Origin: Deltaproteobacteria bacterium
GTDB lineage: Bacteria; Bdellovibrionota_B; Oligoflexia; Oligoflexales; Bog-1112
DNA: 64,000 bases
Assembly (NCBI GenBank): GCA_016186945.1
Contig: JACPKR010000041.1
Coordinates: 10,115 to 74,114 of the forward strand
Direction: 5' to 3'
Within the stretch, counting starts at the first letter, position 1; each line of letters starts with the position of its first letter. Positions 38,855 to 50,011 of the stretch are shown here, one piece after another. A program made the translations under genes and the position numbers. The notes beneath the pieces were generated by a model, which was given only the letters and a program-made list of their open reading frames with translations, was not told the DNA's origin and did not search any database.

Positions 38855-40507
38855 ATGCCCATTGGATTCTCAACAGCCTTGATTCTTTTGTTCTTAGGAG
38901 CGGCGAAACTTTTCGCACAGCCCTCACCTTCCGAAAAACCCTTAACCATTGGAGTAAGCGATGAATTTTTTGATATGCACCCCATTGGTCCGACGAGAAA
39001 GGGGAAGGATAGCTTGCTGGCGCTTTGCCTGAGAGCGCTTCTGGGAGTGGACGAAGCGGGGCATTTGAGGCCAGTCCTTGCGAAGGGTCTGCCCGTCCTC
39101 AAGTCCCACATAATCGGGGGAGAGGCCCGCACCATGCTTGAATTTGACCTTAGCCCGCAAGCAATTTTCGGGGACGGGTCCCCCGTCACTGGATTGGATG
39201 TGCGGTTTTCATGGACAGTGGGAAAAGCTCAAGGGGTCGAACCCTATTCATTGATCGAGGACGTCTGGATTTTAGAAACCCAGCCCGAGCGGGTTCGTTT
39301 CCTCTTGGCGCGGGGAACAAGTGCGAACATTTTGTGGCAATTAGCAGGATTTAGGGTCGTGCGTGCGAAGAACGAGGCCCCCCTGCTGGGGAAAGACTAC
39401 GGGAACAAGACACTTTATCGCACCCTGCCCACTCTTCCTGATTTGTACAATGGTCCCTATGTGGTGAAGGAATTTGAAGTGGGGCGGCACATTCTTTTTT
39501 CCCGCAATCCTTACTTTGGGGGAAAGGTTCCCGAGTTTGCGGAAATAAAGGTCATCCTGGAGCCAGACCCTCTCCTCTTGGAAAAAATGTTGAAGCAGGG
39601 AGACATGCAGGTCGCGCTTTCCGATTCATTTTCTTCAGAACAACTGAGCAATTGGGAAGAAAAGGCGCTTAAGGAATCACCGCCATTGCGGGTTTATCAG
39701 AGACCTACGGCAGTATCGGAGCGGGTTGATTTCAATCACACGCATCCCTTGTTGGGAGACGTGCGCATTCGTAGGGCGCTTTCTTTGAGTCTGGATCGTA
39801 CCCAGCTTCGTGATGAAATCTACCCAGACCGTCGACTGCCCGCATTTTCCTTTCTTCCAGGTGTCTCGATGACTGTGCAGCCATCCGGTTTGAAGTTGGA
39901 GAAAGCAAAGCTCATTATGAAGAATCTCGGATGGAAACAGGGAAAAGATGGTTTCTTGATTAGAAAGGGGAAACCGCTGAGCTTGCCACTCGCCGTTGAT
40001 ACTCAGGACAAATTCAGAAATAAGCTTGCTGAACGTCTCAAGCAACAATGGGCAAAACTAGGCGTCGATATTCAGATCAAAAAGTTGCCAGCTCAGGAGT
40101 TTTTCGATCTGGTTAAGAAAGCACGCTTCAGTGCGCTGGCGCTTTATGCTCAACTAAGCCCAGACCTTTCCCGCCTGAGTACGCAGCTCGCCAGTTCTTC
40201 CATTCCTAGCCGAGATAACTTTTATGTCGGAGAGAATTACGGGCGTTTCGCTAATAAGGGAATTGACCAGCTTCTCACGCAATATGATCAGGAGTGGAAT
40301 CTGACCAGGAGAGAGTACTTGTTGGGGGAACTGGAGGAAAAATTTCAGGAGGCGTTACCATTTCTTCCCATCTTTTTTAGGTATGAAACGGCTGTTGTAA
40401 CAAGCACCGCTTGTGGCAAGGAGGTGGTTTGGAGGAAACTGCGCAGCTGGTTCCCCCAAGAAACACTAGAGATCGATTGGCTCCGCGCTATTTTCCTCTG
40501 CCCTTGA
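38855..40507 (+). CDS. Periplasmic oligopeptide-type (family 5) substrate-binding protein, repeat-encoded tail
   Basis: Extracellular solute-binding protein of the Opp/Dpp class, with a Sec signal (FSTALILLFLGAAKLFAQ). Typical segments: IFGDGSPVTGLDVRFSW, YNGPYVVKEFEVGRHILFSR, DVRIRRALSLSLDRTQLRDE, LKQQWAKLGVDIQIKKL. No permease or ATPase gene is adjacent, so it must share a transporter or serve another role. The C-terminal 30 residues (after about TACGKEVV) come from a family B repeat at 40409-40464 and sequence beyond it, so the original end lies near residue 520. It overlaps the convergent next gene by 42 bases. Confidence 0.8.
   Translation: MPIGFSTALILLFLGAAKLFAQPSPSEKPLTIGVSDEFFDMHPIGPTRKGKDSLLALCLRALLGVDEAGHLRPVLAKGLPVLKSHIIGGEARTMLEFDLSPQAIFGDGSPVTGLDVRFSWTVGKAQGVEPYSLIEDVWILETQPERVRFLLARGTSANILWQLAGFRVVRAKNEAPLLGKDYGNKTLYRTLPTLPDLYNGPYVVKEFEVGRHILFSRNPYFGGKVPEFAEIKVILEPDPLLLEKMLKQGDMQVALSDSFSSEQLSNWEEKALKESPPLRVYQRPTAVSERVDFNHTHPLLGDVRIRRALSLSLDRTQLRDEIYPDRRLPAFSFLPGVSMTVQPSGLKLEKAKLIMKNLGWKQGKDGFLIRKGKPLSLPLAVDTQDKFRNKLAERLKQQWAKLGVDIQIKKLPAQEFFDLVKKARFSALALYAQLSPDLSRLSTQLASSSIPSRDNFYVGENYGRFANKGIDQLLTQYDQEWNLTRREYLLGELEEKFQEALPFLPIFFRYETAVVTSTACGKEVVWRKLRSWFPQETLEIDWLRAIFLCP
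40409..40464 (+). repeat. Family B repeat fragment inside the 3' end of a gene
   Basis: It starts GCTTGTGGCAAGGAGGTGG, then the core GGAGGAAACTGCGCAGCTGG, and ends in TTCCCCCAAG. It carries the reading frame on, adding codons to the peptide-binding protein. Confidence 0.8.
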
Positions 40508-41561: not shown

Positions 41562-41705
41562 GTAATGCGTAAGCCACTTGGGGCAAGGAGGTGGTTTGGA
41601 GGAAACTGCGCAGCTGGTTCCTCCAAGAAATCCGGGGGAGGCGACGCTTCACTCGCCCCCCCAAACCCCCCTCTCCCTATTTGCCCCATGTGGCTTACGC
41701 ATTAC
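41562..41705 (+). repeat. Family B element, complete copy with 25-bp terminal inverted repeats
   Basis: 144 bp bounded by GTAATGCGTAAGCCACTTGG... and its mirror ...GTGGCTTACGCATTAC (one mismatch in the 25). Inside are the GGAGGAA/TTCCTCC core hairpin and the C-rich arm. It lies alone in a 279-bp gap between divergent genes, so the ends can be read cleanly. There is no coding capacity; it is a non-autonomous, MITE-like element. Confidence 0.88.
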
Positions 41706-42253: not shown

Positions 42254-42345
42254 GGAGAGATGGCTGAGTGGTCGAAAGCGCTCGCTTGGAAAGCGGGTAG
42301 ATGGGTAAAACTGTCTCGGGGGTTCGAATCCCCCTCTCTCCGCCA
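42254..42345 (+). tRNA. serT: tRNA-Ser(GGA)
   Basis: The 7-bp acceptor GGAGAGA/TCTCTCC, the D-arm GGCTGAGTGGTC, the anticodon stem CTCGC/GCGGG with anticodon GGA at 42288-42290, the long variable arm typical of serine tRNAs, the T-arm GGGGGTTCGAATCCCCC, discriminator G and encoded CCA are all visible. It decodes UCC/UCU. Its 3' end is the left boundary of an integrated element. Confidence 0.95.
42336..42345 (+). other. Left attachment site candidate (attL) at the tRNA-Ser 3' end
   Basis: The last ten bases, CTCTCCGCCA, recur at 50002-50011 just after the integrase gene. Tyrosine integrases commonly use tRNA 3' ends, so these two copies are the likely ends of the element. Ten bases is short for a core, so the exact ends are not certain. 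Confidence 0.5.
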
Positions 42346-42555: not shown

Positions 42556-43425
42556 TCAGAATTTCGATCGACCTGTGATAGAATTTTTTAGGCGAACAAT
42601 TTGATCCAACCCCCTCCTGAAGAGGTATCTTTTGGGCACGATAATGCCCTGAAACGCAAGAAGCTGAGCCTGCCAAAAATCGCGTTGAGTTGAAGTCTGA
42701 ATCCTCCGACGGATGTGCCAAAGACAATAGGCCAGAAGCCAAGAATACTTTTCATTTTGTTCAGTTTGTTGGAAACCACGTTCTATCGTGCGTCGAATAT
42801 TTCTCAGGAATGTGTTGGCGTTTTCTCGCGGAGGAGTGCCGACCGAATTAGTGGGCCTGGTTAACTCATCGCTTAAGTCAAAAACGTTTAGGAAATTAAT
42901 AATAAAACTAGAATCTCTTCTCACGGAAGGGACACCATGTGCTTCTGGAGCGACAACGATCTCCTGTTCGTTACTGATCAAATCGATCACTTTCTGGTTC
43001 ACTACAATTCGCGGAACGTTGGCATTTTTACATTCCAGTTCAAAGGCGTCGATAAATGCAGGACCAGTTATTATTCTTTCTTCGAGGTTTACGTAGAGAG
43101 CTCCAACGGAAATCCCTCCTCTCACGGGATGATTCGTGTCCATTAAATGAAACTGAATTGAACAGATATTTCGCAGAAAATCCTGAGTCATCCTATCATT
43201 TTCAAGTGCGCTGCATCCCAACTTTCGATACGCAATGATTGAGTCGCTAATTAATTCTATTCCATCAAATCCGGATCGAAAGTTTGTCATGAACTCTTTA
43301 AGAACGCGACCATTGTTAAAAAACCTCGAAGTTTCTTGTTCCGAATTTTCACCTTGGATAATTTTTTTGAATCCTAAGACATCAAGAAAAGCAACTATGT
43401 ATTCTTTGTATTTCACTTCAATCAT
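42556..43425 (-). CDS. Class III nucleotide cyclase-like protein
   Basis: A 289-residue cytoplasmic protein. Its first 135 residues follow the class III cyclase homology pattern: YIVAFLDVLGFK (Asp15), ISDSIIAY (Asp61) and RGGISVGALYV...GPAFIDAFELE. The two Asp residues, 46 apart, match the metal-binding pair of cyclases. However, the positions of the transition-state Asn and Arg in VNxAxRLE read Ile and Glu, so activity is uncertain. The rest is a helical region with no known domain. It follows the methyltransferase-nuclease gene with eleven bases between and is probably co-transcribed. Relation to cyclase-based phage defence is inferred only. Confidence 0.6.
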   Translation of the reverse strand: MIEVKYKEYIVAFLDVLGFKKIIQGENSEQETSRFFNNGRVLKEFMTNFRSGFDGIELISDSIIAYRKLGCSALENDRMTQDFLRNICSIQFHLMDTNHPVRGGISVGALYVNLEERIITGPAFIDAFELECKNANVPRIVVNQKVIDLISNEQEIVVAPEAHGVPSVRRDSSFIINFLNVFDLSDELTRPTNSVGTPPRENANTFLRNIRRTIERGFQQTEQNEKYSWLLAYCLWHIRRRIQTSTQRDFWQAQLLAFQGIIVPKRYLFRRGLDQIVRLKNSITGRSKF

Positions 43426-43436
43426 AGTTGGGCCAG

Positions 43437-44870
43437 TTACGCAGATTGGGGAAGAGTTTTGTCGCTATAATCATATTTTTCAAACAAGCGATCGATTTCT
43501 TCTTTCTTTGCATGAGGGATCAGTATGTCCTTGAAAATATCAAACGCTGACTTTGCAATGATTTCGATATCTTCATTTTGTTTTAAAGTGGCAATGTATT
43601 CGAGGGCATTTTTTGAAAATTCCCAGGCTACAAAAACACCAATCCTCTTCTTTTCCGATGTTATCGCTGAATGAAATTTTTGTATGTCAGGTCGTCCGAC
43701 AGGTGTTGAATGGTTTTTCACTTGAATTGGATTGCGATTTCCATCCCAACCATCGATCCCTCGATCACCTGTCTTTTTGTCATTAACTTTCCAGCCCATA
43801 TATTCACAAACGATTCTTGCAAAATCGTGCCCATCAATTTCCTTCAACTCCTTCTCAGTTTTGGGAACATTTTTGATCTCGAAACTAACTTTCGAAGATT
43901 TGCTGTTGAGCCTTTGTGCCGACACTTTGATAGCTACGGGAGATACGTCCCCTATGATAAATCTTCGATCTGTCATCGAGCAAACTTTTGCCGTGGTTCC
44001 GCCTCCGGAGAAGCAATCCAAAACGAGATCACCGGGATTTGATGAACACTTTATTAGTCTTTGAAGTAAGGCTTCTGGTTTTTGAGTTGGGTACCCCAAA
44101 CGTTCAGTGGCTTGTCCTTGGATTGCCAAGATATCGTCCCATACTGTATCAACCGGCCTTCCCTTGTTTTCATCTAAGTACCGTTTCAAGCGTGGAACCC
44201 CATTTCCTTTCTGGTAAATAAGCCCTTGTCGATCCGCGTCGTTCATTTTTTCTTTTGTCCAACGCCATACCTTTAGATGTCCTCTGAACTCATAAGTCAA
44301 ATTTGGCCTATTAGGGTTTGGATTTGCAAGGTTGTCTAGCTGATATCGTCGTCCCGTCCCTTCTTCGACATGCTTATAGAACTTTCGAATATACTCAGGG
44401 TCCTGACTGCTGAACGGCCGATTCCAAGTAAATTTTTCAGATTTTGTGTAATAGAGAATTGTATCGTGATTATTGGGTAATCTGGTTGAAGCAAGTCCTT
44501 TGGCTCCCTGTCTTTTCCAAATAATCTCAGACCTGAAATTTTTTCCTCCAAATGTATCGTCAAGTAAGCACCTGAGGCGATGTGAGGCGTGCCAGTCACA
44601 ATGAAGAAATAGTGTTCCCGTATTTTTTATTTTCTTATGGATCAATTCGATTCTTGGCCTCATCCATTCGATATAGTGTGAAATTCCGCCAGAAAATCTA
44701 TCCCCGAATGATCTTAGTTCATACCCGTTTCCCCAAATAATTTCATAGTCTCGATTGCTAAAGAAGGGGGGGTCAATATAGCAAAGGTCAACGGATTCAT
44801 CAGGAATCCAATTGAGCCAGTCAATATTGTCACCGCAAACAATGGTGTTTTTATTTGGATCAATTTTCAC
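43437..44870 (-). CDS. DNA methyltransferase (DPPF, beta type) fused to an Mrr-like nuclease domain
   Basis: A 477-residue single-chain restriction-modification-like protein. Catalytic DPPF is at residues 33-36, followed by HYIEWMRPRIELIHKKIK and GTLFLHCDWHASHRLR; the target recognition part lies about 120-250. Then come YPTQKPEALLQRLI and the SAM-binding LDCFSGGGTTAK near residue 290, the order of the beta class (N6-adenine or N4-cytosine). The C-terminal 130 residues contain FARIVCEYMGWKV and GDRGIDGWDG...IQVKN, the D-(Q)xK pattern of Mrr/PD-(D/E)xK endonucleases. The start is GTG with GAGGT upstream. First gene of a two-gene operon. Confidence 0.85.
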   Translation of the reverse strand: MKIDPNKNTIVCGDNIDWLNWIPDESVDLCYIDPPFFSNRDYEIIWGNGYELRSFGDRFSGGISHYIEWMRPRIELIHKKIKNTGTLFLHCDWHASHRLRCLLDDTFGGKNFRSEIIWKRQGAKGLASTRLPNNHDTILYYTKSEKFTWNRPFSSQDPEYIRKFYKHVEEGTGRRYQLDNLANPNPNRPNLTYEFRGHLKVWRWTKEKMNDADRQGLIYQKGNGVPRLKRYLDENKGRPVDTVWDDILAIQGQATERLGYPTQKPEALLQRLIKCSSNPGDLVLDCFSGGGTTAKVCSMTDRRFIIGDVSPVAIKVSAQRLNSKSSKVSFEIKNVPKTEKELKEIDGHDFARIVCEYMGWKVNDKKTGDRGIDGWDGNRNPIQVKNHSTPVGRPDIQKFHSAITSEKKRIGVFVAWEFSKNALEYIATLKQNEDIEIIAKSAFDIFKDILIPHAKKEEIDRLFEKYDYSDKTLPQSA

Positions 44871-45409: not shown

Positions 45410-46153
45410 ATGCTCGACAACCCACGAGATTTTTTTTCCGTCAAAGAAGCAGTGAAGCAGCTTGGAAAAGATAAGGACTATATCTTTACTCTCGGAAGCC
45501 ATGGCGACGTTTCTACCTTTTTTTATGAAGAATTGTTTCAGTACGAAAGAAACGAAAAAAACGATATCAGGACTAAAACTAAAAAGCGTGTTTTAGGGTA
45601 TTTTCAGCTAACGACGAACATCGTCGCAAATTTTCTTCTATCTCAGAGAAGACCACAGGAAAAGGACTTAATGCCTTCTTTTAGTGAAGTTGTTATTGCA
45701 GGAGATTTGTGGGTCAAGCTTGATTCAGACCTGAAAGAAGACCCAAAGTATGTTTACCGTTTTGGCGGAAGCGCGGAAGACAGTCTGGAAATCAACACTG
45801 ATCGTTCAATCTATTTTCTAAAGTCGGAAATAAAAGCGATTAAGGATGGAAAAGGTTTGCGTAGCCGTGACAAAAAGCGAGCTACTAGAATTGACAAGGT
45901 AGAGAACGAACGCTCCTTTTTTGAATTTGTTGTGTTAGCCATGGACAGGGCCCATCGAGCTGGTGTCTTGGATAAGTTTTATCGAAATGGAAAGCTTAGT
46001 GTGAGTGCGTTGTTAACGTTCGCTGAGACCAATCCTTATCAATCTGCTTCAGTTTATAACTACGACCTCTCGGAATTCAAGAAGGGGCATGACCGAGATG
46101 CCTTTACTCGGAGAGTGAGGGAACTTAATACAAAGATCGAGGCCCATATATAA
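45410..46153 (+). CDS. Protein of unknown function in the integrated element
   Basis: A 247-residue basic, soluble protein with AGGAGAG before its ATG. Segments: FFSVKEAVKQLGKDKDYIF, FQLTTNIVANFLLSQRRP, ENERSFFEFVVLAMDRAH. No recognised domain. It lies between the cargo operon, which is divergent, and the replication/integration genes. It could be a regulator or a second cargo gene. Confidence 0.6.
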   Translation: MLDNPRDFFSVKEAVKQLGKDKDYIFTLGSHGDVSTFFYEELFQYERNEKNDIRTKTKKRVLGYFQLTTNIVANFLLSQRRPQEKDLMPSFSEVVIAGDLWVKLDSDLKEDPKYVYRFGGSAEDSLEINTDRSIYFLKSEIKAIKDGKGLRSRDKKRATRIDKVENERSFFEFVVLAMDRAHRAGVLDKFYRNGKLSVSALLTFAETNPYQSASVYNYDLSEFKKGHDRDAFTRRVRELNTKIEAHI

Positions 46154-46316: not shown

Positions 46317-46544
46317 ATGAAGGATCGCATTCTTCGTGAGCCTGAGGTTCTCAACCTTACAGGTCTCAGTCGAACAACGATTTGGCGTTTAGAGAAAGAA
46401 GGAAGTTTTCCACGAAGGGTCAAAATTTCAAGGCAAGCGGTGGGTTGGTTGTTTCAGCAGATTCAAAAGTGGATGGAGCAGAAACATGAGATTTCGTTAA
46501 ACATAGAGGAGGGCAGAGATGGAAGACCTCGAAGCAATACTTAA
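46317..46544 (+). CDS. AlpA-family DNA-binding regulator
   Basis: A 75-residue winged-helix/MerR-type protein: ILREPEVLNLTGLSRTTIWRLEKEGSFPRRVKISRQAVGW is the classic AlpA pattern, with the recognition helix in SRTTIWRLE. AlpA proteins commonly control integrase or excision in P4-like and other islands. GGAGG precedes its ATG. It overlaps the start of the prim-pol gene by 26 bases. Confidence 0.85.
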   Translation: MKDRILREPEVLNLTGLSRTTIWRLEKEGSFPRRVKISRQAVGWLFQQIQKWMEQKHEISLNIEEGRDGRPRSNT

Positions 46545-47328
46545 GCAAGGAGCTATGGTCTTTCCTGTTCATGGAATAACGGAGGCTCGGTTATGCACAT
46601 GCAGAAAAAAGGATTGTGGCTCTCCAGGGAAGCATCCGATCTATCCCAATTGGCAGCGGCAAGCGTGTACATCCCTGGACCAATTTGATTCTGTCAAGAG
46701 AGCCTTTGGTCCTATCAACTACGGTTTGATCACGGGTGGGGCAAGCCAGATTATTGTAGTCGATGTTGATAAGCGAGATGATCATGACGGAGCTGAATCT
46801 TTAAAAATCGTTGAATCCAAGTATTCCGAATTGCCTCGGACCGTAGAAAGTTTGACCGGTGCAGGTCGCCATATTTTTCTACGCATTCCTGAAAGGGTTT
46901 CTATCAATAATCGAGTGGGAATTTTTCAGGGAATTGATATTCGAGGTGAGGGTGGCTTCGTCGTCATTCCACCAAGCAGGCACCACTCAGGGAAAGAGTA
47001 TGCTTGGGATTGTGAACGGCACCCTGAGGATATTTCCATTGCCTTTGCTCCTCCCTGGCTGACTACACTCATAGCCTCACGGAATGAAAAGCAGAAGTCT
47101 GACTGGCAAGGGATACTTAAGGCAGGATTTTCGTCGGGGACGAGAAACTGCTCACTCACCAAGATTGCTGGGCATCTTTTAGGCAAGGGGGTCTCATTTG
47201 AAGTTGCGTTGGTTGCGGCGTTAGGCATTAACGAGAAGAGATGTTTCCCTCCCCTCCCTAGCTCTGAAGTATTTCACATTGTCCGAAGCATCGCAAAAAG
47301 AGAAAGGGGGAAACACGATGGAATATAG
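46519..47328 (+). CDS. Bifunctional DNA primase/polymerase (prim-pol) protein
   Basis: A 269-residue protein. An N-terminal prim-pol domain has VFPVHGITEARLCTC, GLITGGASQIIVVDVDKRDD (the catalytic DxD), TGAGRHIFLRIP (active His) and IDIRGEGGFVVIPPSRH. The end, about 200-260, has a primase C-terminal (PriCT) look: GTRNCSLTKIAGHLL. It would start replication of the element. GGAGGG is upstream of its ATG. It overlaps the next gene by 11 bases. Confidence 0.85.
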   Translation: MEDLEAILKQGAMVFPVHGITEARLCTCRKKDCGSPGKHPIYPNWQRQACTSLDQFDSVKRAFGPINYGLITGGASQIIVVDVDKRDDHDGAESLKIVESKYSELPRTVESLTGAGRHIFLRIPERVSINNRVGIFQGIDIRGEGGFVVIPPSRHHSGKEYAWDCERHPEDISIAFAPPWLTTLIASRNEKQKSDWQGILKAGFSSGTRNCSLTKIAGHLLGKGVSFEVALVAALGINEKRCFPPLPSSEVFHIVRSIAKRERGKHDGI

Positions 47329-48562
47329 CACAAACACCAAAAATGAGCCATCGCCAAATCCTCGCATGTACTATGGTCCCCTCGGAGAAATCGTTACACG
47401 AGTTTCCCCACAAACGGAGGCTGATCCCGTTGCAGTTTTCGCGCAGCTTTTGTCGATGTTTGGGAACTGTTGTGGGAGAAATTCCTATTACCTCGTCGGT
47501 GCAACAAAACACTATCCAGTCTTGTTCTCACTGATAGTCGGGCGTTCGTCAAAAGCTCGGAAGGGCACAGCTGCCGACCTAGCTAAAATGATTTTCAGAG
47601 ATGCTGAACCAGAGTGGGCCAAGAACTGTTGTGATTCGGGGCTTTCATCCGGTGAAGGAATCATCAATCGCATTCGAGATCAACAAGGTGAGGACGCTGG
47701 GGTATCGGACAAGCGTTTGTTTCTTCTTGAAACTGAGTTTGGCGGAGCTTTGAGAGTCTTGCAGCGGGACGGAAACAAACTTTCATCTGTCGTGAGAGAT
47801 GCGTGGGACGGAAATATTTTAACTTCCCTCATTAAACACAACCGAATCACTGCAACTGACCCGCATATGTCTATCGTAGGACAAATCGTTCAGCAAGAAT
47901 TGCAAAGATACTTGACCAACACAGAAATTTTCAACGGGTTTGGGAATCGCTTTCTGTTCATTTATTCAAAACGTTCTAAGTTGCTTCCACACGGTGGAGA
48001 TATTGATGCTTCAAAGTTCTTCCTTGAAATTGATGCAATCAAACGTGCGATTGAATTCGGCAGGAAGCAACAACGTCTCACAATGGATGATGAAGGGAGA
48101 AAGGCGTGGGAAGAGATATATGAAGAACTCTCCGTTGAAAAAGATGGTTTGGTCGGTGTGCTCACAAGTCGTGGGGAAGCTCAAATCCTTCGGCTATCGA
48201 TGATCCTTACTTTGTCGGTTTGCAGTTCCGTTATTACTGCTGACCATCTGTTTGCAGCATACTGTCTTTGGCAATACTGCGTTCAGTCGTGCGAGTACAT
48301 CTTTGCTGACTTCCGAGAAGATCCTGACCTTCTAAAGTTCCTTACGGCTCTCGAGCAGGCTGGAAAAGATGGACTGACTCGAACCGATATTTCAAATCTC
48401 TATGGCCGCAATAGGGGTCGGGGTGCTCTGGAGAAGATTCTCGGGTCAGCCTTGGTAGCCGGAAAGGCGACCTATGAGGTCATTCATGCCCCTCCAGGAC
48501 GTCCTAAGGAGGTTTGGTACTTCAAACAGCCCATCGTTCAAGCAACTGAGAATACGAACTAA
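47318..48562 (+). CDS. DUF3987-like replication-associated protein
   Basis: A 414-residue protein from ATG 47318, which overlaps the prim-pol stop. Its pattern (FAQLLSMFGNCCGRNSYYLV, LFSLIVGRSSKARKGT as a P-loop-like segment, LFLLETEFGGALRVLQRDGN, NGFGNRFLFIYSKRSKLLP) is that of DUF3987 proteins, which accompany prim-pol proteins in mobile elements and are helicase-like. No proven activity. Confidence 0.75.
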   Translation: MEYSTNTKNEPSPNPRMYYGPLGEIVTRVSPQTEADPVAVFAQLLSMFGNCCGRNSYYLVGATKHYPVLFSLIVGRSSKARKGTAADLAKMIFRDAEPEWAKNCCDSGLSSGEGIINRIRDQQGEDAGVSDKRLFLLETEFGGALRVLQRDGNKLSSVVRDAWDGNILTSLIKHNRITATDPHMSIVGQIVQQELQRYLTNTEIFNGFGNRFLFIYSKRSKLLPHGGDIDASKFFLEIDAIKRAIEFGRKQQRLTMDDEGRKAWEEIYEELSVEKDGLVGVLTSRGEAQILRLSMILTLSVCSSVITADHLFAAYCLWQYCVQSCEYIFADFREDPDLLKFLTALEQAGKDGLTRTDISNLYGRNRGRGALEKILGSALVAGKATYEVIHAPPGRPKEVWYFKQPIVQATENTN

Positions 48563-48628: not shown

Positions 48629-48868
48629 ATGGAAAATACTCGCGGCAATAAACGCGAAGAGGTCTTTGAAAATTCGGATGAAATACTAACTACAAAAGAA
48701 GCTGCAACGTTACTCAAAGTAAGTGAGAAATCGCTCCTGAACATGTGTTGTAATGGGATGGTTCCTTACTATAAGTTGGGTCGTCGCAATAGGTTTAGAC
48801 TTTGTGACCTGAGAAGTCTCCTTCTTGCAAACAAGAAAGGGGCCACTAATGGGCACAAAATACGATGA
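48629..48868 (+). CDS. Excisionase/helix-turn-helix DNA-binding protein
   Basis: A 79-residue protein with the MerR-like Xis pattern: ILTTKEAATLLKVSEKSLLNMCCNGMVPYYKLGRRNRFRLCD. It would direct excision with the integrase, which overlaps it by 20 bases. GAGG lies before the ATG. Confidence 0.8.
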   Translation: MENTRGNKREEVFENSDEILTTKEAATLLKVSEKSLLNMCCNGMVPYYKLGRRNRFRLCDLRSLLLANKKGATNGHKIR

Positions 48869-49943
48869 AAAGACTGGCTACTATATTGTTTCATTTTGCA
48901 AAAGAAATCCAAGAACAGGAATGCCTGTCTCTCTTAAACGAAAAACAAAACAGAAAACTAAGGTAAAGCAAATTGAGCGAGAACTTATCGCTGCTGTAGA
49001 GCGTAAGATTGCGGAAAAGGTAACTCCCAGGTGGAAAGATGTCGTCTCTAGCTACGTCGAAGATGCAAGAGCACGAGGTCTAGCAGAAGTCACGATCTAC
49101 AACACTCAGAAGTGTGTAGAGGCTGCAACGTTCGAAAAATGGGGGTCGCGTCTTGTAACGGAGATCACGACCCAGGATATTCGAAACTTGATTCAAGTGG
49201 AATTCAAAGATAATGCGCCAAGCCATCAGAGGGCAATGCTTAAGTATCTGCGTCAGGTTTTCACTTACGCGCTTGAGAATGGATACCTTCAAAGAGATCC
49301 GGTACCCAAACTTGCCTTCAGAGTTGGAGACAAAATCAAGAAGGTACTCACAGAAGATCAGGTGAAAACTCTCTTGAGGACGGCCAAGTCCATGAACTGG
49401 GAGTGGTACCCTCACGTTACTATGTGCCTCTACACAGGCCTTCGTAATGGCGAACTCTACGCCTTAACTTGGGACAGGGTGAGCCTAGACCAAAGGCAGA
49501 TCATTATTGATCGATCTTGGTGCAGCAAGGGAGGTTTCAAGAGTACGAAATCTGGCGATGATAGGGTTATAGAAATAGCGCCAAATTTGGTTCCACTTTT
49601 GAAAGAGCTGAAGCTTAAAAGCTATGGCGAATCCTTTGTCCTACCTCACATGAGAGAATGGGAGATAGGAGAGCAGGCTAGGCAGCTCAGACGCTTTCTA
49701 GTGGGCATTGGTTTACCAGAGATTCGATTCCATGACTTGAGAGCAACTTGGGCAACACTGTTGCTATCCAAAGGAGTAGCACCTGCAAAGGTCATGATGA
49801 TGGGGGGATGGAAGGACATGAAGACCATGATGATCTATATGCGGAAGACCGGTATCGACATCAAAGGAATGACTGACTGTCTGAACCTACATGATCCAAA
49901 CTTTTCAGGAGCGAAGGTTCTCAATTTTTCGTCGCCGTCGTAA
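48849..49943 (+). CDS. int: Tyrosine-type site-specific integrase
   Basis: A 364-residue phage-type integrase. The N-terminal arm/core-binding SAM-like region includes WKDVVSSYVEDARARGLAEV. The catalytic domain has Arg in TGLRNGELYALTW, HDLRATWATLLL (His-x-x-Arg), GGWKDMKTMMIYMRK (Trp in place of the second His, and the nucleophilic Tyr). ATG at 48849 with AAAGGGG upstream is chosen over 48825. It integrates and excises the 7.7-kb element; the right attachment site is about 58 bases after its stop. Confidence 0.9.
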   Translation: MGTKYDEKTGYYIVSFCKRNPRTGMPVSLKRKTKQKTKVKQIERELIAAVERKIAEKVTPRWKDVVSSYVEDARARGLAEVTIYNTQKCVEAATFEKWGSRLVTEITTQDIRNLIQVEFKDNAPSHQRAMLKYLRQVFTYALENGYLQRDPVPKLAFRVGDKIKKVLTEDQVKTLLRTAKSMNWEWYPHVTMCLYTGLRNGELYALTWDRVSLDQRQIIIDRSWCSKGGFKSTKSGDDRVIEIAPNLVPLLKELKLKSYGESFVLPHMREWEIGEQARQLRRFLVGIGLPEIRFHDLRATWATLLLSKGVAPAKVMMMGGWKDMKTMMIYMRKTGIDIKGMTDCLNLHDPNFSGAKVLNFSSPS

Positions 49944-49964
49944 TCGGTCGTAAGTGGGGTGAGA

Positions 49965-50011
49965 GAGTGGTGGAATTGCAGTAGCTTGCAAGTGCTCCGC
50001 ACTCTCCGCCA
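49965..50011 (+). other. tRNA-like remnant and right attachment site (attR)
   Basis: GTGGTGGAATTGCAGTAG looks like a tRNA-Leu 5' half, and GCACTCTCCGCCA like a tRNA 3' end with CCA. The two are separated by only about 17 bases, so no functional tRNA can form. CTCTCCGCCA at 50002-50011 repeats the tRNA-Ser end at 42336-42345. A deleted tRNA or a repeated attachment remnant are both possible. Confidence 0.4.

What the first reader, a model, noticed from the sequence alone, without database searches (positions are those of the whole stretch)
42556..44870. Class III cyclase-like protein coupled to a methyltransferase-nuclease fusion in a small island
Two tightly spaced genes form the cargo of a 7.7-kb integrated element. 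One is a single-chain DPPF methyltransferase with an Mrr-like nuclease domain; the other has the cyclase metal-binding Asp pair (Asp15, Asp61) but lacks the usual transition-state Asn/Arg. Restriction-modification plus a cyclase-like protein on a mobile element suggests a phage-defence module, possibly with a nucleotide signal or a nucleotide sensor. I know no system of exactly this make-up.
Basis: partly seen in the sequence, partly recalled or inferred. Interest (0 to 1): 0.75.

Follow-up and report, generated by a model that had tools for sequence, protein, structure and literature searches.

The report
Unnamed cyclase-fold family beside restriction genes
A small mobile DNA island carries a DNA-methylating-and-cutting enzyme next to a protein shaped like the enzymes that make cyclic AMP but missing the parts needed to make it; the protein belongs to a large unnamed bacterial family that turns up repeatedly inside restriction (anti-virus) operons, which makes it a testable new defence candidate.

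Summary
The two genes and the 7.7-kb tRNA-Ser element exist as described. The 289-aa protein has a class III cyclase fold (model pLDDT 82.7; Z 15.8 to mycobacterial Rv1625c). It belongs to a family that no Pfam, NCBIfam or PADLOC model matched: 79 analysed loci in many phyla, plus plasmids and phage contigs. Both metal Asp are invariant in 82/82 aligned members; the transition-state Asn/Arg and base-reading Lys/Asp are lost across the family, while R102, E131, R139, K226 and W229 are kept. It should hold metal-NTP but not make cNMPs in the canonical way.

The window's exact pairing is not conserved: none of the 92 related loci pairs it with this methyltransferase, and methyltransferase-Mrr relatives sit alone in phages and plasmids. 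The wider theme is real: five genome loci carry the gene in type I restriction operons with hsdM (once beside CD-NTase/Cap15, once as tandem paralogues) and a sixth beside an hsdR fragment, from several lineages; one clade forms a fixed operon with a ParA-like ATPase.

Best reading: a nucleotide-binding accessory of restriction and other defence loci, analogous in position to PrrC or TgvAB. Fold and residue pattern are computed; defence function, and coupling to this methyltransferase, are inferred.

The parts
42254..42345 (+). tRNA-Ser(GGA), integration target; its 3' end (42331-42345) is the left end repeat
   Evidence: ARAGORN; Rfam; repeat D11
42556..43425 (-). cyclase-like protein, 289 aa; class III cyclase fold in residues 1-183, family-specific helical C-terminus 200-284
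43437..44870 (-). single-chain N6/N4 DNA methyltransferase (DPPF) fused to an Mrr-type nuclease domain, 477 aa
44953..45303 (-). DUF5681-like small protein (below Pfam cut-off), 116 aa
45410..46153 (+). protein of unknown function, 247 aa
46317..46544 (+). AlpA-type regulator
46519..47328 (+). Prim-Pol/PriCT primase
47279..48562 (+). DUF3987 protein of the replication module
48629..48868 (+). excisionase-like HTH protein
48825..49943 (+). tyrosine integrase
49997..50011 (+). right end repeat of the tRNA 3' end (13/15 identical)

Best explanation
[quoted passage not shown] The family keeps the two-metal NTP site (shown by conservation) but lost the residues that read the base and stabilise cyclisation (shown), so it should bind metal-NTP without making cAMP or cGMP in the usual way (inferred). 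The gene travels on mobile DNA and is repeatedly built into restriction operons and other defence-like operons (shown). The most likely role is a nucleotide-binding accessory or second line of defence that works with, or guards, a restriction system, much as the embedded PrrC nuclease does (inferred). In the window it is the downstream gene of a self-contained methyltransferase-Mrr restriction enzyme and probably shares its transcript (inferred from the 11-nt gap): the first enzyme would methylate the host and cut unmodified invading DNA; the cyclase-like protein would respond to an altered nucleotide pool or failed restriction and act on its own, since no conserved effector gene lies beside the family.
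For: Fold: pLDDT 82.7, residues 1-183; VIA Z 15.8 (rmsd 3.6, 167 aligned) to Rv1625c; Foldseek E 1.2e-5 to CyaB. Profile search of the PDB puts adenylate cyclases on top, though weakly (E 0.035). Conservation in 82 sequences: D15, D61, R102, E131, K226 82/82, R139 81/82, W229 79/82; Asn column N in 3/82, Arg column R in 10/82, base Lys 6/82, base Asp not among the common residues. Specificity: the family profile finds one gene in a genome with five canonical class III cyclases. Patchy spread: 15/295, 9/295 and 7/293 genomes in three clades, each count including the genome the search was centred on. R-M operons: L031 HsdM-cyc-PIN-HsdS-HsdR with 4-bp overlaps; L042 HsdM-CD-NTase-Cap15-cyc-HsdS-HsdR; L047 HsdR-HsdS-cyc-HsdM; L048 HsdR-HsdS-cyc-cyc-HsdM; L049 cyc-HsdM; L063 next to an HsdR-like fragment. 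All hsd homologues found around 79 loci lie in the same gene run as the family gene. Rough expectation 0.16 loci with hsdM within 2 kb, 5 seen. The type I R-M label needs at least 4 changes on the tree. Other defence ATPases beside it: AriAB/PtuA-like in L015, OLD/GajA-like in L067. R-M-embedded genes with proven defence: TgvAB (PMC11411939), PrrC (PMC12707154).
Against: Most family loci show no restriction gene within 8 kb with the queries used, and no partner is shared by all. No phage experiment exists. The window pairing is a single case. The hsd queries came from these loci, so remote hsd genes elsewhere could be missed, and the expected rate was measured in one order only. An invariant metal site could also mean ordinary housekeeping catalysis.
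Confidence: 0.5

Rival explanations
1. The two genes are unrelated cargo that happen to lie side by side: a self-contained restriction-modification enzyme and a separate stand-alone cyclase-like gene.
For: No other locus pairs these two genes. The methyltransferase-Mrr fusion is alone in Mycobacterium phage Dori, Streptomyces phage Asten and plasmids, and its closest relative L096 (55% identical) lies among phage genes. Family members are mostly not beside R-M genes.
Against: 11-nt spacing on one strand, and independent insertion of the family into type I R-M operons, some with overlapping start/stop codons.
Confidence: 0.35
2. The protein is an active nucleotidyl transferase that makes a nucleotide signal by non-canonical chemistry, with other basic residues (R102, R139, K226) taking the place of the lost Asn/Arg, and signals to an effector, as in Pycsar or Panoptes.
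For: Both metal Asp and four further charged residues are invariant or nearly so; tandem paralogues in L048 suit the dimeric class III arrangement; L042 places it beside a CD-NTase and a Cap15 receptor. Some accepted or proposed class III cyclases lack the Asn (PMC4886424).
Against: No conserved effector gene beside the family; the Arg is lost as well as the Asn; base-specifying residues are not fixed, odd for a specific signal.
Confidence: 0.25
3. The protein is a catalytically dead nucleotide sensor that switches a partner (restriction complex, ParA-like ATPase, OLD/AriA ATPase) on or off.
For: Different partners in different clades: hsd operons, the ParA-like ATPase operon (one clade, SH-aLRT 99), OLD and AriAB-like ATPases. 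Loss of transition-state residues.
Against: Full invariance of both metal Asp is more than most pseudo-enzymes keep; many members have no evident partner.
Confidence: 0.3

Closest known systems
Class III nucleotidyl cyclases (Pfam PF00211 Guanylate_cyc)
   Same: Fold; both metal Asp; beta-4 Arg (R102) and the Glu after the helix (E131)
   Different: Not matched by PF00211; transition-state Asn/Arg and base-specifying Lys/Asp lost; extra C-terminal helices with invariant K226 and W229
DUF2652 cyclase-like proteins (PMC4886424)
   Same: Uncharacterised stand-alone cytosolic class III-like family with the metal Asp kept and Asn replaced (Ile in the mycobacterial set)
   Different: No Pfam match to it here; DUF2652 mostly keeps the Arg or another polar residue and a fixed Lys-Glu or Glu-Lys/Arg pair, this family does not
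Pycsar (PycC pyrimidine cyclases, PMC11224242)
   Same: Class III fold protein linked to defence; two catalytic Asp
   Different: No effector gene alongside; no PADLOC match
R-M-embedded defence genes: PrrC (PMC12707154) and TgvAB (PMC11411939)
   Same: Accessory gene inside a restriction operon; PrrC also responds to a nucleotide (dTTP)
   Different: No sequence relation found (no Pfam/PADLOC match to those families); cyclase fold instead of an anticodon nuclease or GmrSD
Panoptes mCpol (PMC12657218, PMC12657230)
   Same: Small palm-fold nucleotide enzyme in defence (recalled, not compared here)
   Different: mCpol is described as a miniature Cas10; the closest folds here are class III cyclases
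Methyltransferase-Mrr fusions of actinobacteriophages (Dori gp42, Asten gp48)
   Same: Same domain order, 37-38% identity over about 86% of the protein
   Different: The phage and several plasmid copies have SVK in place of the QVK of the nuclease site; no cyclase-like gene beside them

Membership tests
Class III nucleotidyl cyclase (as a fold) | Class III cyclase catalytic-domain fold | tested here: met
   AlphaFold model, VIA Z 15.8 to 7yz9, Foldseek E 1.2e-5
Class III nucleotidyl cyclase (as an enzyme) | Two metal-binding Asp | tested here: met
   D15 and D61 in 82/82
Class III nucleotidyl cyclase (as an enzyme) | Transition-state Asn and Arg | tested here: not met
   I125 and E129 in the window; N 3/82, R 10/82 in the family
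Class III nucleotidyl cyclase (as an enzyme) | Base-specifying residue pair | tested here: not met
   E57/I118 in the window; columns variable
Class III nucleotidyl cyclase (as an enzyme) | cNMP formation | not testable with these tools
   needs an assay
DUF2652 | Match to the Pfam model | tested here: not met
   Not among Pfam matches of 11 members at E 1
Pycsar | Cyclase paired with a TM or TIR effector gene | tested here: not met
   Window neighbour is the methyltransferase; no such recurrent neighbour in the family
Pycsar | PycC sequence family | tested here: inconclusive
   No PADLOC match at E 1, but whether that library holds a PycC model was not checked
CBASS | CD-NTase fold synthase with Cap effector | tested here: not met
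   Class III cyclase fold; a separate CD-NTase and Cap15 lie beside it only in L042
Single-chain methyltransferase-nuclease R-M enzyme | Methyltransferase motifs DPPF and SAM loop | tested here: met
   Pfam E 1e-44
Single-chain methyltransferase-nuclease R-M enzyme | Mrr nuclease site D...QxK | tested here: met
   GDRGIDG...PIQVK kept in L096 and L097
Single-chain methyltransferase-nuclease R-M enzyme | Restriction activity and target site | not testable with these tools
   needs expression and methylome sequencing
R-M-embedded accessory defence gene (PrrC/TgvAB kind) | Gene inside a restriction operon | tested here: met
   L031, L042, L047, L048 between hsd genes; L049 beside hsdM; for the window only adjacency to the fused enzyme
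R-M-embedded accessory defence gene (PrrC/TgvAB kind) | Protection against phage | not testable with these tools
   needs a phage challenge

The most novel reading that the evidence does not exclude
An unnamed, phylum-wide family of non-canonical class III cyclase-fold proteins forms a nucleotide-based second layer of restriction-modification: it converts or senses NTPs when restriction fails or phage alters the nucleotide pool, and has been recruited repeatedly into type I R-M operons, next to CBASS in one case, and into this methyltransferase-Mrr island.
Probability: 0.3. Interest if true: 0.82.

Novelty: new variant of a known kind. Interest (0 to 1): 0.6.

Why it matters
If the family is defensive, it adds a nucleotide-handling protein class to restriction operons and offers a test case for how a class III cyclase fold works without its catalytic Asn/Arg. 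The invariant residues give exact mutants to make, and L031, L042 and L048 give ready-made operons to test. It would also tell whether restriction and nucleotide signalling, usually seen as separate defence layers, are coupled.

Tried and rejected
Single-sequence scan of viral contigs with the cyclase-like protein: no relative. Phage GenBank tblastn: none. E. coli genomes with the ParA-cyclase operon DNA: none, so no common E. coli host was found. Conserved pairing with the methyltransferase, searched from both sides: rejected. Empty integration site in relatives: synteny lost, inconclusive. Viral structure library: distant cyclase-domain hits only. Paper searches for the motif text, for R-M with degenerate cyclases, and for a ParA/prophage cyclase-like system: nothing describing this family; the library lacks most subscription journals. 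DUF2652 considered and rejected.

Full report
What is there. Two minus-strand genes 11 nt apart lie at the tRNA end of a 7.67-kb element next to tRNA-Ser(GGA). The element carries AlpA, Prim-Pol/PriCT, DUF3987, an excisionase-like HTH protein and a tyrosine integrase, a short end repeat and lower GC than its flanks (43.7% against 49.7-50.6%). The upstream cargo gene is an N6/N4 methyltransferase with DPPF fused to an Mrr nuclease domain whose D...QxK site is intact. The downstream gene is the cyclase-like protein.

Fold. An alignment of 74 members gave a confident model (pLDDT 82.7). Residues 1-183 match class III cyclases (VIA Z 15.8 to Rv1625c, Foldseek E 1.2e-5 to CyaB). Sequence searches alone are weak (PDB profile E 0.035; Pfam, PADLOC and NCBIfam none).

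Residues. Profile alignment to six real cyclases from related genomes maps D15 and D61 to the metal Asp. In 82 family members these, with R102, E131 and K226, never vary; R139 is 81/82 and W229 79/82. The columns of the transition-state Asn (N 3/82) and Arg (R 10/82), and the base-reading Lys (6/82) and Asp (not among the common residues), are not conserved. So the whole family, not only this copy, departs from canonical cyclase chemistry. The same genome has five canonical class III cyclase matches, and the family profile picks out only this gene.

Distribution. Relatives at 21-29% identity occur on plasmids (43 records), in genomes of Pseudomonadota, Bacteroidota, Bacillota, Bdellovibrionota, Spirochaetota, Verrucomicrobiota and others (80 loci) and in viral contigs (44). 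Within clades they are sparse and nearly always single-copy: 15/295, 9/295 and 7/293 genomes, each including the centre genome.

Neighbours. No locus repeats the window pair. Three patterns recur. First, a conserved two-gene operon with a ParA/MinD-type ATPase, one clade (SH-aLRT 99) in Pseudomonadota and in viral contigs. Second, type I R-M operons: L031, L042, L047, L048 and L049 with hsdM, L063 beside an hsdR-like fragment; in L031 the gene overlaps both neighbours by 4 bp, in L042 it follows a CD-NTase and a Cap15 receptor, in L048 two family genes stand in tandem. The tree needs at least four changes for this label. N6_Mtase genes occur at 108 in 147 genomes of one order, which gives an expectation of about 0.16 loci with one within 2 kb; five were seen (P 9e-7, or 7e-4 if only three lineages are counted). 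This is a rough estimate: one order was used for the rate, and the hsd queries came from the loci themselves. In the independent PADLOC tally, four nearest neighbours matched a type I methyltransferase model, while none appeared among the families listed for genes more than 5.5 kb away. In a second sample of 28 loci with 1.5-kb flanks, one lies beside hsdS and two beside ParA. Third, single cases next to OLD/GajA-like and AriAB/PtuA-like ATPases. Most other members have no shared partner.

The methyltransferase-Mrr enzyme is itself ordinary: relatives stand alone in Mycobacterium phage Dori, Streptomyces phages, plasmids and viral contigs.

Interpretation. Genes embedded in type I R-M operons have proved to be defence genes: PrrC, activated when EcoprrI is inhibited and sensitive to dTTP (PMC12707154), and TgvAB (PMC11411939). 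By position the cyclase-like family belongs to that set. The invariant metal site argues for metal-NTP binding; loss of Asn, Arg and base readers argues against normal cyclisation; absence of a common effector argues against a simple cyclase-effector pair such as Pycsar. I therefore favour a nucleotide-binding accessory that acts on its own or on its neighbour. Fold, residue pattern and genomic context are computed results; defence function, the nucleotide trigger and cooperation with this methyltransferase are inference.

Novelty. A literature search found no description of the family; the nearest published case is DUF2652 (PMC4886424), which Pfam does not match here. The library lacks most subscription journals, so an earlier description cannot be excluded.

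Noticed in passing
L042:1304-9573: A CD-NTase and Cap15-type receptor gene pair (CBASS-like) sits inside a type I R-M operon between hsdM and hsdS, together with a cyclase-like gene.
   Followed up: partly
L048:5797-10320: Two cyclase-like paralogues in tandem between hsdS and hsdM, suggesting a heterodimer.
   Followed up: partly
L052:6934-8675 (also L029, L034, L050, L062, L070, L080, L081, L093, L103, L105, L108): Conserved two-gene operon of a ParA/MinD-like ATPase and a short (~225 aa) cyclase-like protein in genomes and viral contigs; PADLOC gives only weak partial hits.
   Followed up: partly
L196:1426-3249 (minus strand): Cyclase-like domain fused behind an N-terminal part of about 310 aa of unknown kind.
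   Followed up: no
window 49955-50011: The right end of the element is a strong hairpin ending in the tRNA 3' sequence CTCTCCGCCA (z-score -3.0); it looks like a tRNA remnant but is not called as one.
   Followed up: partly
window about 40416-40465 and 41585-41635: A near-identical stretch of about 45 bp (GGCAAGGAGGTGGTTTGGAGGAAACTGCGCAGCTGGTTCC) occurs twice, outside the element.
   Followed up: no
window 45410-46153: 247-aa protein between cargo and replication genes with no family match.
   Followed up: no
G036:C8:61458-62165 (L176, L178, L179): Broken copy of the cyclase-like gene (frame breaks and stops) in a genome of the same order.
   Followed up: no
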